In this document: piece by piece, positions 15,045 to 34,339 of the stretch
Layout: each line of letters opens with the position of its first letter
How positions within the stretch are numbered: the first letter of the stretch is position 1
Source of the DNA: Cordilura impudica
Lineage: Eukaryota; Arthropoda; Insecta; Diptera; Scathophagidae
Reading direction: 5' to 3'
DNA length: 64,000 bases
Assembly (NCBI GenBank): GCA_963682025.1
Contig: OY821521.1
Span: 57,071,408-57,135,407 of the forward strand
Translations under genes and position numbers: made by a program
The notes under the pieces: generated by a model
Told to the model about the DNA's origin: nothing
The model's input: the letters and a program-made list of their open reading frames with translations, nothing else
Database searches by the model: none

Positions 15045-17311
15045 TTAATTAATTACCCTTTTTTCAATTGCTGATAGAGCTAAACAATTCAAATTATCTC
15101 TATTTTTTACTAACCCATAAGTGTTCAACCGTGAAATTTTACCAACAAGTTGTTCGGTATAAATACTTGTTGATTGAATATTTCTGGAGGTTTCAATTGC
15201 ATTTAAAAAACTTTTCTGGTCTGCCCACTCAGCTGCATTAAAAAGCATAAATGAGATGTTTATTCCAAAACTAACTAGAGTTTTTAAACTCTGAAGAGTT
15301 ATAAAATCCAAGGTTCAGAAAATACACACACGAAACACACAATGTTCTGTTCAAAAGCAGCCAACACATATCTTTATTTTCATATCAATTATGTGCGTTT
15401 CTAAATTTTCTACGGTGCCCAACACAACCATAACTGTGTTCGTTTTAATATTTCGTTATTTACACGAACATTTTTGTATCACATACTTTTTGTTTCAATC
15501 ACACATAAAGCACACATTTTTGAGTGTTGCTTTATTTGAAGTTCATGTTCTGGTACGTGTAATGAAAAAAAACACAGAACATGTACAATAAACAGGTTCG
15601 AGTTCAGTTATATTTTAAGTCGTGTTGTGGCTCGTGTAGTAAGAAAAAACACAACATGTACAATAAACAGGTTCGAGTTCAGTTATATTTTAAGTCGTGT
15701 TTAAAATATAACTGAACTCGAACCTGTTTATTGTACATGTTCTGTTTTTTCTCACGGCGACTTAGAAAAAAAGGAATCACTGTACGTCATCTTGTGCATT
15801 GCATCTACTTCAACATTATTAACCACTTGCTCAACTTCTTCGATTTCAATGAAATCTTTTTCGTAAAGCATTTGGTCTGTTGTATTAATTAAATTTATAA
15901 AATCTTCTGTGTTTTCCTTCACTGACATAGTGGGTATTTGATTTTTATCTTCTTCTAAATCACTTGAAAAAAGGCTTATGTTTGGATCAATTTTTATGAG
16001 TTGCATTAGTTGACCTTGACTATTAATTCCTAACAACTTAACACGTAGATTTTCTTTTTCTTCCACTGAAATTCTGTCATCAAATATTGAAAATATTGCA
16101 TTTTCTTCGGTTAAATAATCCATATGACGATTTGGGAAAATTCATGAAGCTCCGTTAGGAAATCTAAATCATTTTTTGGCGCATATATAGTAGATTGACA
16201 AGTAAACCAATACTTTAAATATACTGTTATGAAATATATAAGCATCGACTCGAACTGTTCTACTAAGATTTCCGATATATTAAAAATGCTCTTTAAATAG
16301 CAAAATTTTGAAAATGTATATAACCTTAGAGAGCCATCTAGCATGGTGATCTGCTCCACAAGATTTAATTTTGTAATTTGAGTTCGCATTTAAATGCACA
16401 AGTGCTAGTTCCGCTACTTCCCGGTGATCTGCTCTACGATGATTAATTTTGGTCTGTTTTTCATAAATATCTATCAATGCTTGTTTATTTTTTTCCAGTA
16501 TTGGTTTAAGTGTTTTGGAATGTAAAGCCGGTGTAATTTTCAAACTGCTGTTTTGGTTGAACCATTTTCGAAACTGGGCAAATATCGGAATTCCAGCACC
16601 AACACTTTTCATGACAACAGCTTTGAATGGATTTGCTACACATAATTCTTTCTGATGTAGACCGCATGGTCTTCGGTTTAAATGTTTTGGGTTTGAATCC
16701 AAACTAATGGATTTTTCAAACAATATTGCTGCTCCACTTTTTCTACCGGAATTTGATGCTGTTGTATCATACGAAAGCCCAACAATATTGTGTGTAATTT
16801 TTAACTCTTCGCACTGTTTTTTCAAATTCATTTGCAATAGTTTGACTTGGACCATCTTCGATGAAATTGCAGGATATTAGCTTTTGCAGTCCATTTGGTG
16901 CAGATACGCTGATCACCAATCTTTCCACCATATCGTTACTGTTGTTCTGCATCTTTTTACCATCCCAATACAATATTAAATGGTTTGGAAATTTAAATTG
17001 GTGAAGCCTTCTAAACGATTCCTGGCGTTCGTTATTTCACATATTCCATACAGTGGATTTCGATGATTTTCCTCTCACATTATTGTGCTGTTTAAGTTCT
17101 AAGAAAAGGCGCGACATAGAAGTGGAAGAAATTCCCAGACTATCCAAGAGTCCACAGATATTTGGACTAATAAAAACAAACGTGGAAACTTTTGACTTTG
17201 CTTCATCAAGCAACCAATTTGGGTCATTGGTTTCACTATCAGATTCTTCGTGCGCTTCTCCAACATCCAGTTCCTTTTCAAGACAAAATTCTAATTCTCG
17301 TTTTGGTGTCG
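15045..17311 (-). pseudogene. 3' part of the host transposase, broken
   Basis: This continues the transposase reading frame beyond the Polinton. From 17311 downward the frame is open (KRELEFCLEKELDVGEAHEE), then meets a TGA near 17040. It continues with HLILYWDGKKMQNNSNDM and loses frame near 16830. The shifted frame holds IVGLSYDTTASNSGRKSGAA, CGLHQKELCVANPF and ADHHARWLSKVIYIFKILLF. Further pieces are at 15752-16123 and, after an inserted palindromic repeat, 15045-15311. The Asp residues in WDGK and DTTASNSG are candidates for the catalytic acids. The gene is dead through nonsense, frameshift and two insertions. Confidence 0.65.
15318..15748. repeat. Insert with tandem and inverted copies of one 50-base sequence
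   Basis: A block containing CATGTACAATAAACAGG and TTCGAGTTCAGTTATATTT occurs directly at about 15578-15625 and 15654-15702, and inverted at about 15703-15743, so the second and third copies form a nearly perfect hairpin. The block separates two parts of the broken transposase and is probably a small insertion. Its outer ends (near ACACACGAAACACACAATG and TTCTCACGGCG) are uncertain. Confidence 0.6.
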
Positions 17312-17920
17312 AGTAGTGTCATGGGGAGAGATCTGGAAAAAAGAGCAGGGAGCAAAAATTTTATACTAATTTTGTATGGCAAAACTAACAGTGACGTCAA
17401 AAAAATCAACCCTGTTTTGTTATTCTGTTGTGGTTTTGATTGGTATGTATGAATGTGTGCTTGAAATAGGTTGGCACTTATATACCTGTAAGTTTTTGAA
17501 ATAGTGTGTGAGTAATGAGATTCGGCAACTGGCCTGGTACGACTTGGCTTGGTTTGGCTTGGCTCGTCTTGGCTTGGCTCGCTTTGGCTTGGCTCGCCTT
17601 GCCTTGCCTTGGCTTGGTTTGGCTTGCCTTGGCTTGACTTGGGGCTTGTCTTGGCTTGGCTTGACTTGGGGCTTGTCTTGGCTCGGTTTGGTTTGGCTTA
17701 GCTTGGCTTGGCTCGGCTCGGCTTGCCTCGGTTTGGCTCGAGTTGGTTAGGATTTGTATACTAATTTTGTATGTGAAAACTAACAACGACGATATAAATG
17801 TCACCCCTGTATTGTTGTTCTGTTGTTAAAAGTTCTGCTGCGGTTTTTCGTTGATATGTATGAATGTGCGTGTTTTGAAAGAGTTGATATAATTAAATTG
17901 TTTGAATACAAAGACTTGTT
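17312..17920 (+). repeat. Polinton left terminal inverted repeat
   Basis: It is 609 bp, the reverse complement of 33725-34333. The internal structure is an outer unique block, a 0.2-kb low-complexity tract of GGCTTGG-type units (about 17535-17745), and an inner block that partly duplicates the outer one (both carry ATACTAATTTTGTATG, then a TTCTGTTGT and TATGTATGAATGTG series). The open frames across the tract (17478-17804 minus, 17508-17750 plus) are composition artefacts. The first bases are where protein-primed replication would start. Confidence 0.95.
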
Positions 17921-18102
17921 TCTAATCATACTCAACAAAGTTGATTAGAAATAAAAATCAAAACAACACTATTTATGTGTATATATATATATATATATAT
18001 ATATATATATATATATTTTATTTATTAATTTGTTTGAGAATTTTATAATATAATAAAAATAAAAAAATAGTAAAAAAATAAAAACACATACTGAAGTATA
18101 TA
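17921..18102. other. Spacer with (TA)n microsatellite
   Basis: The short region between the left TIR and the 3' end of the integrase gene holds a (TA)n run at about 17983-18016. No gene is seen. Confidence 0.7.
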
Positions 18103-33531: not shown

Positions 33532-33822
33532 CTAAATCATACAAACAAAAAAAAAAACAGTTTTTATTTTACAAAAACAATATTTATTTATATATATATA
33601 TATATTAAAAACAATTTTTGCATTTTGCAAACAAAATAATTTACAATCACAAACAATATGCGAATCAGTCGTATTTTGTTTCAAGATAAGACAATTTTCA
33701 AAATGAACATCATGAACTGATAGGAACAAGTCTTTGTATTCAAACAATTTAATTATATCAACTCTTTCAAAACACGCACATTCATACATATCAACGAAAA
33801 ACCGCAGCAGAACTTTTAACAA
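33532..33822 (-). CDS. Doubtful small ORF overlapping the right TIR
   Basis: 96 residues, Cys-rich (for example CECACF-like spacing, CDCKLFC). About one third overlaps the right TIR (33725 onward), and the rest overlaps a TA-rich tract. No family recognised. The same TIR portion at the left end does not continue into a similar protein. Probably a chance frame, listed because a small TIR-proximal gene cannot be excluded. Confidence 0.2.
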   Translation of the reverse strand: MLKVLLRFFVDMYECACFERVDIIKLFEYKDLFLSVHDVHFENCLILKQNTTDSHIVCDCKLFCLQNAKIVFNIYIYINKYCFCKIKTVFFFVCMI

Positions 33823-34333
33823 CAGAACAACAATACAGGGGTGACATTTATATCGTCGTTGTTAGTTTTCACATACAAAATTAGTATACAAATCCTAACC
33901 AACTCGAGCCAAACCGAGGCAAGCCGAGCCGAGCCAAGCCAAGCTAAGCCAAACCAAACCGAGCCAAGACAAGCCCCAAGTCAAGCCAAGCCAAGACAAG
34001 CCCCAAGTCAAGCCAAGGCAAGCCAAACCAAGCCAAGGCAAGGCAAGGCGAGCCAAGCCAAAGCGAGCCAAGCCAAGACGAGCCAAGCCAAACCAAGCCA
34101 AGTCGTACCAGGCCAGTTGCCGAATCTCATTACTCACACACTATTTCAAAAACTTACAGGTATATAAGTGCCAACCTATTTCAAGCACACATTCATACAT
34201 ACCAATCAAAACCACAACAGAATAACAAAACAGGGTTGATTTTTTTGACGTCACTGTTAGTTTTGCCATACAAAATTAGTATAAAATTTTTGCTCCCTGC
34301 TCTTTTTTCCAGATCTCTCCCCATGACACTACT
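33725..34333 (-). repeat. Polinton right terminal inverted repeat
   Basis: It is 609 bp, the reverse complement of 17312-17920. The 327-bp stretch 33841-34167 gives exactly the same 108-codon translation as its left-end partner, so the two TIRs are identical there. The low-complexity CCAAGCC tract lies at about 33905-34115. Identity of the TIRs indicates recent replication, gene conversion, or both. Confidence 0.95.
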
Positions 34334-34339
34334 GTGTCG

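What the first reader, a model, noticed from the sequence alone, without database searches (positions are those of the whole stretch)
17306..34339. Complete, apparently young Polinton/Maverick with all virion hallmark genes open
The window shows exact AG...CT ends, a perfect 6-bp TSD (GTGTCG), 609-bp TIRs identical where compared, and intact integrase, PolB, ATPase, protease, MCP and mCP frames with their catalytic motifs. Most genomic Polintons are broken. This copy is a strong candidate for an endogenous virus able to replicate and package.
Basis: partly seen in the sequence, partly recalled or inferred. Interest (0 to 1): 0.9.

Follow-up and report, generated by a model that had tools for sequence, protein, structure and literature searches.

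The report
Complete, likely young insect Polinton provirus
This stretch, likely from an insect genome, holds a complete Polinton, a virus-like mobile element whose predicted genes for copying, inserting and packaging itself all have open reading frames and whose two ends are identical, so it likely inserted recently and would be a good but unproven candidate for a living endogenous virus of a kind already known.

Summary
The element runs 17312-34333 (17,022 bp) between two copies of GTGTCG. Its terminal inverted repeats (TIRs) match at 609 of 609 positions, including a 196-bp degenerate 5-bp repeat array. Its ends read (AGT)2//(ACT)2, the commonest Maverick end motif in a published vertebrate survey. 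Integrase, A32-type ATPase, adenain-like protease, double-jelly-roll major capsid protein and PolB frames are open with catalytic motifs in place. The neighbouring gene is predicted to fold like mavirus and adenovirus pentons. It also carries a parvovirus-type phospholipase A2, as some insect Mavericks do. Removing the element and one TSD leaves a 193-codon frame open across the site, moderate support for a clean insertion.

It is a new, unusually complete member of a known kind. Much of the gene content, PLA2 included, is in print for Spodoptera Mavericks, and 134 intact vertebrate Mavericks are reported. Activity is not shown. Youth rests on TIR identity and open frames: assembly collapse or gene conversion is not excluded, and no other individual, read set or second copy could be examined. 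The least expected part is a predicted secreted protein (25863-26522, minus strand) with only 21 detected relatives and no convincing fold match.

The parts
17306..17311 (.). left target site duplication GTGTCG
   Evidence: exact match to 34334-34339
17312..17920 (+). left terminal inverted repeat, 609 bp, starts (AGT)2; holds a degenerate 5-bp repeat array at 17543-17738
   Evidence: 609 of 609 identical to the right repeat; array identical too
18103..19029 (-). integrase, 308 aa, rve core plus C-terminal chromo-like domain; D38, D99, E133 (33 residues between D99 and E133)
   Evidence: PF00665 E 5.8e-15, PF00385 E 6.5e-4 but below its cut-off; retroviral integrase structures, best E 8e-9; motifs
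19088..19543 (-). open frame, 151 aa, unknown
   Evidence: only weak Pfam matches below cut-off
19581..20567 (-). open frame, 328 aa, unknown, acidic stretch
20696..21403 (-). A32/FtsK-type packaging ATPase, 235 aa
   Evidence: PF04665 E 5.5e-8 above cut-off; Walker A GPSNCGKT, Walker B IFIFDD
21480..22298 (+). phospholipase A2 protein of parvovirus type, 272 aa
   Evidence: PF08398 E 3.3e-15; FCGPG and HDIAY
22298..22651 (+). adenain-like cysteine protease, 117 aa; its ATG overlaps the PLA2 stop (TAATG)
   Evidence: S273R E 0.003 and adenain E 0.09 in solved structures; H, D, C motifs; overlap read
22768..23979 (-). double jelly-roll major capsid protein, 403 aa
   Evidence: PF21738 E 8e-124 over the full profile; 1163 relatives, best 95%
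24124..24810 (-). minor capsid (penton) protein, 228 aa
24904..25416 (-). open frame, 170 aa, unknown
25497..25751 (-). small open frame, 84 aa, uncertain as a gene
25863..26522 (-). predicted secreted protein, 219 aa, unknown family with 21 detected relatives; in-frame exact 54-bp tandem duplication at 26239-26347
26616..27173 (-). open frame, 185 aa, unknown
27631..27948 (-). open frame, 105 aa, paralogue of 28514-28885
   Evidence: 42.6% over 61 aa, E 2e-12
28514..28885 (-). open frame, 123 aa, paralogue of 27631-27948
29693..33517 (+). family-B DNA polymerase of protein-primed type, 1274-codon stop-to-stop frame (first ATG 29696), N-terminal C2H2-like finger, endonuclease VII-like zinc region between ExoI and ExoII
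   Evidence: ordered motif set, same pattern positive in phi29 polymerase, A-B-C core in 0 of 20000 shuffles; endonuclease VII region, weak matches
33725..34333 (-). right terminal inverted repeat, 609 bp, ends (ACT)2
34334..34339 (.). right target site duplication GTGTCG

Best explanation
The stretch 17312-34333 is a complete Polinton/Maverick, an integrated virus-like element with open frames for polymerase, integrase, packaging ATPase, protease and both capsid proteins, and it was likely inserted recently as a double-stranded DNA by its own integrase. Steps shown: boundaries, 6-bp TSD, 609-bp identical TIRs with a repeated AGT at each end, open frames, motifs, and a penton-like fold in a predicted model. 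Steps inferred from the families: the polymerase would copy the linear genome from both ends by protein priming and slide back over the AGTAGT repeat. The integrase would join the ends at a 6-bp staggered cut. The major capsid protein and penton, trimmed by the protease, would form an icosahedral shell that the ATPase fills. The PLA2 would open a membrane on entry. Whether this copy is expressed or makes particles is not known.
For: Exact TSD, 609 of 609 TIR identity and AGTAGT ends. (AGT)2//(ACT)2 is the commonest motif of vertebrate Mavericks, and the 'jumping-back' explanation is given by the same authors (PMC8097293, passages and section 7). Size 17,022 bp and TIR 609 bp fall within their intact ranges of 12,723-24,620 bp and 46-1,447 bp. 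Profiles: rve, Pox_A32, PLA2_4, DJR-like. Penton fold. Protease (plus motifs). PolB motif order with phi29 as positive control. All 15 frames open. Empty site leaves 193 codons open, 102 and 91 on its two sides; at least 80 codons open on both sides occurred in 16 of 2000 random flank joins, and the longest spanning frame drops to 126-132 codons at offsets that break the frame (1, 2, 4 and 5 bases).
Against: No transcription, read, particle or second-individual data. PolB was matched by no polymerase profile of Pfam, PHROGs or NCBIfam and by no polymerase in the solved structures, so it rests on motifs. The protease match is weak. By length alone the spanning frame is weak support: 281 of 2000 random joins reach 193 codons (286 of 2000). 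The search of the host genome for sister copies did not complete (11 calls). The chromo match is below its curated cut-off. I did not test whether the accessory frames are full length. The 0.93 is for what it is and how it was inserted; recency alone I put at about 0.8, and the silent-copy rival is compatible with this explanation.
Confidence: 0.93

Rival explanations
1. A real Polinton, but not young: the TIRs are identical because the assembly collapsed them or because gene conversion keeps them alike.
For: TIR identity is the only dated evidence. Long inverted repeats are a known assembly hazard (general knowledge). The nearest capsid relative in the database already differs by 5%, so the family itself is not brand new.
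Against: All core frames are open, which an old neutral insertion would be unlikely to keep. Identity runs to the TIR edge with no decayed zone.
Confidence: 0.2
2. A complete-looking but silent copy: inserted recently from an active parent elsewhere, itself silenced or carrying defects outside the tested motifs, so it makes no virus.
For: No activity data. Most vertebrate copies are defective (PMC8097293, passages). Accessory frames and promoters were not tested. A 118-bp TA tract and low-GC, gene-poor DNA lie at about 28-29.7 kb.
Against: Every core frame is open and every tested motif is present.
Confidence: 0.45
3. The element's genes are kept by the host for its own use (domesticated provirus).
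For: All capsid genes are open, as would be expected of a kept set; a bracovirus proviral circle of a parasitoid wasp holds a partial Maverick (PMC5803895, section 11 part 1).
Against: Exact ends, TSD and open integrase and polymerase are what a fresh mobile copy has; it interrupts an open frame and lies among other transposon remains.
Confidence: 0.03

Closest known systems
Spodoptera frugiperda Mavericks 1 and 2 (PMC5803895; KY042018, KY042019)
   Same: A32 ATPase, rve integrase with chromo domain, PLA2 protein and protease, PolB with endonuclease VII-like region, PolB on the strand opposite to the small genes (Maverick 2); similar protein lengths (passages and section 11 part 1)
   Different: There the eight small genes run in one direction; here PLA2 and protease are inverted against the other small genes. 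This copy has further genes (secreted protein, paralogous pair). TIRs and TSD are not described in the parts that I saw. No direct sequence comparison was made.
Intact vertebrate Mavericks (PMC8097293)
   Same: 6-bp TSD, (AGT)2//(ACT)2 ends, similar size and TIR length, PolB, ATPase, integrase, MCP, mCP, protease
   Different: Two-module gene order there; PLA2 is not mentioned there (0 occurrences of 'phospholipase')
Adintoviruses, including Drosophila-associated adintoviruses 1-3 (PMC8363768, PMC11071296)
   Same: PolB, rve integrase, FtsK ATPase, capsid and protease genes; chromodomain on the integrase (passages); one weak structural match of the penton model to a Drosophila-associated adintovirus 2 protein
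   Different: The defining OTU-like domain was not found by profile and the hexon BLAST link was not tested
Mavirus virophage
   Different: a virophage of a marine flagellate that reactivates on infection with the giant virus CroV (same listing)

Membership tests
Polinton/Maverick (polintovirus) | 6-bp target site duplication | tested here: met
   GTGTCG on both sides
Polinton/Maverick (polintovirus) | long terminal inverted repeats with a repeated short end motif | tested here: met
   609 bp identical, AGTAGT; motif list from PMC8097293
Polinton/Maverick (polintovirus) | retrovirus-like integrase | tested here: met
   PF00665 E 5.8e-15; solved integrases, best E 8e-9
Polinton/Maverick (polintovirus) | protein-primed family-B DNA polymerase | tested here: met
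   by motifs only: seven in order, pattern validated on phi29; no polymerase profile matched; priming itself not testable
Polinton/Maverick (polintovirus) | A32/FtsK packaging ATPase | tested here: met
   PF04665 E 5.5e-8
Polinton/Maverick (polintovirus) | adenain-like protease | tested here: met
   weak: S273R E 0.003, adenain E 0.09, motifs, Ulp1 family E 0.06 below cut-off
Polinton/Maverick (polintovirus) | double jelly-roll major capsid protein | tested here: met
   PF21738 E 8e-124
Polinton/Maverick (polintovirus) | single jelly-roll penton | tested here: met
Adintovirus | integrase with C-terminal chromodomain | tested here: inconclusive
   PF00385 E 6.5e-4, 20 bits against a cut-off of 25.1
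Adintovirus | PolB with N-terminal OTU-like domain | tested here: inconclusive
   no OTU profile among the Pfam matches of the whole PolB frame up to E 10; no fold was predicted for it
Adintovirus | hexon linked to reference adintoviruses by BLASTP | not tested
   references not in hand; definition from PMC11071296 (passage)
Active endogenous virus | expression, extrachromosomal genomes, particles | not testable with these tools
   no reads or samples

The most novel reading that the evidence does not exclude
This is a live insect polintovirus caught soon after integration, of a lineage that adds a conserved secreted soluble protein to the core set, so that it would act on neighbouring cells or host immunity as a free virus does and not only as a transposon.
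Probability: 0.25. Interest if true: 0.7.

Novelty: new member of a known kind. Interest (0 to 1): 0.4.

Why it matters
A 2021 survey states that Maverick particles had not been observed (PMC8097293, start of abstract). A copy with every core gene open, exact ends and a known insertion site is a good place to look for transcripts, free linear genomes and particles in living insects. The 54-bp duplication, absent from the three closest database relatives, could serve as a tag for this copy. The secreted protein family would be a new accessory function to examine if its link to Polintons holds in other copies. The element itself is ordinary for its kind.

Tried and rejected
Host name: not obtained. 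20 of the 120 listed capsid relatives (of 1163 found) carry an organism name and all 20 are insects (flies and one moth; which of them are flies or moths is recalled); the best (95%) is unnamed. I therefore say only 'likely insect'. No Rfam family at gathering score and no tRNA in the window.

Other copies: no element protein matched the flanks at E 0.01 (13 of the 15 frames were given; the 151-aa and 84-aa frames were left out); two short DNA matches of 57 and 31 bp only. Five viral-contig scans (four by protein or alignment, one by an exact end pattern) and one genome-contig scan returned no relative; the tool says that records of the window's own genome may be left out there.

Empty-site frame: first seen as strong support, then weakened by a control in which 286 and 281 of 2000 random joins reach the same length. 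I keep it only as moderate support through the two-sided control (16 of 2000). The pieces of the interrupted region that I scanned matched no Pfam family (16280-16876, 15752-16141, 34332-34646); the short left piece was not scanned.

PolB profile searches failed on the whole frame and on two pieces; a first motif pattern of mine was too strict and missed motif B, and the corrected one was checked on phi29. I changed the pattern after seeing the window's sequence, so the shuffle count is not a blind test.

Literature: (listings and starts of abstracts); passages or single sections of PMC8097293, PMC5803895, PMC4028283, PMC4642659, PMC11071296, PMC11071308, PMC8363768, PMC2836005, PMC6035795. 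None was read whole.

Full report
What is there. The element lies at 17312-34333 and is 17,022 bp long. GTGTCG flanks it on both sides. The two terminal inverted repeats (TIRs) agree at 609 of 609 positions; the first mismatch is position 610 and similarity stops within a few bases. The repeats hold a degenerate 5-bp array of 196 bp that is also identical in both. Each end reads AGTAGT, the (AGT)2//(ACT)2 motif that PMC8097293 gives as the commonest in vertebrate Mavericks and ties to 'jumping back' in protein-primed replication.

Is it more than chance? The longest frame in 100 shuffles is 156 codons against 1274 here. All 15 frames listed, one of them small and uncertain, are open.

Insertion. 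Joining the flanks with one TSD gives a 193-codon minus-strand frame, 102 and 91 codons on the two sides. Length alone is common (281 of 2000 random joins; 286 of 2000), but at least 80 open codons on both sides is not (16 of 2000), and the longest spanning frame falls to 126-132 codons at offsets of 1, 2, 4 and 5 bases. This is moderate support.

Age. Zero of 609 gives a 95% upper bound of 0.49% divergence between the repeats. At assumed neutral rates of 2.8e-9 to 1e-8 per site per generation (my assumption, from no call) that is under about 0.25-0.9 million generations (arithmetic). Assembly collapse and gene conversion remain open.

Relatives. The capsid search found 1163 proteins; the 120 best are listed. 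The best is 95% identical and unnamed; the 20 listed rows with an organism name are all insects, at 49-56% identity. The nearest penton relative (93%) and the nearest capsid relative are both listed with a longest contig of 2,190 bp, which would fit one contig holding both genes (inference).

How it would work. Shown: anatomy, frames, motifs, penton fold of a predicted model. Inferred from the families: protein-primed copying of a linear genome with sliding back on AGTAGT, integrase-driven insertion with a 6-bp stagger, shell of capsid protein and penton matured by the protease, ATPase packaging, PLA2 for entry. The PLA2 entry role is proposed for Polintons in PMC4642659 (passage).

Compared with what is known. 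Spodoptera Mavericks have the ATPase, integrase with chromo domain, PLA2 protein, protease and PolB with an endonuclease VII-like region, and were called apparently intact and transcribed (PMC5803895, section 11 part 1, section 21 and passages). The vertebrate survey lists 134 intact copies in 17 species and% of copies defective (passages). PMC4028283 (passages) reports the two capsid genes in Polintons. So this is a new member of a known kind, valuable for its completeness. The integrase has 33 residues between D99 and E133; I did not compare this spacing with other Polintons.

Limits. No genome-wide search of the host answered (11 calls), no reads or other individuals were available, and activity is untested.

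Noticed in passing
25863-26522 (-): Predicted secreted protein; 21 of the 22 aligned rows have a hydrophobic N-terminal core and none has a later membrane-like stretch. The exact in-frame 54-bp tandem duplication is absent from its three closest relatives.
   Followed up: partly
27631-27948 and 28514-28885 (-): Two small paralogous genes near each other, 42.6% identical over 61 residues; function unknown.
   Followed up: partly
22296-22300: PLA2 stop and protease start overlap as TAATG, an arrangement that may couple their translation.
   Followed up: no
31379-31489 (+), PolB residues about 563-599: Endonuclease VII-like zinc region inside PolB between ExoI and ExoII, weak matches only; also noted for Spodoptera Mavericks.
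   Followed up: partly
17543-17738 and its mirror 33907-34102: Degenerate CTTGG-type 5-bp repeat array, about 38 units, inside each TIR and identical in both.
   Followed up: yes
17040-17311 and 34340-34646 (-): The element interrupts a minus-strand open frame of unknown family (193 codons when joined; right piece without Pfam match).
   Followed up: partly
39948-43546 (-), 9721-11244 (+), 53911-55517 (+): Flanking LINE-like remains (reverse transcriptase, endonuclease, RNase H) and an hAT/DUF4371-type piece.
   Followed up: no
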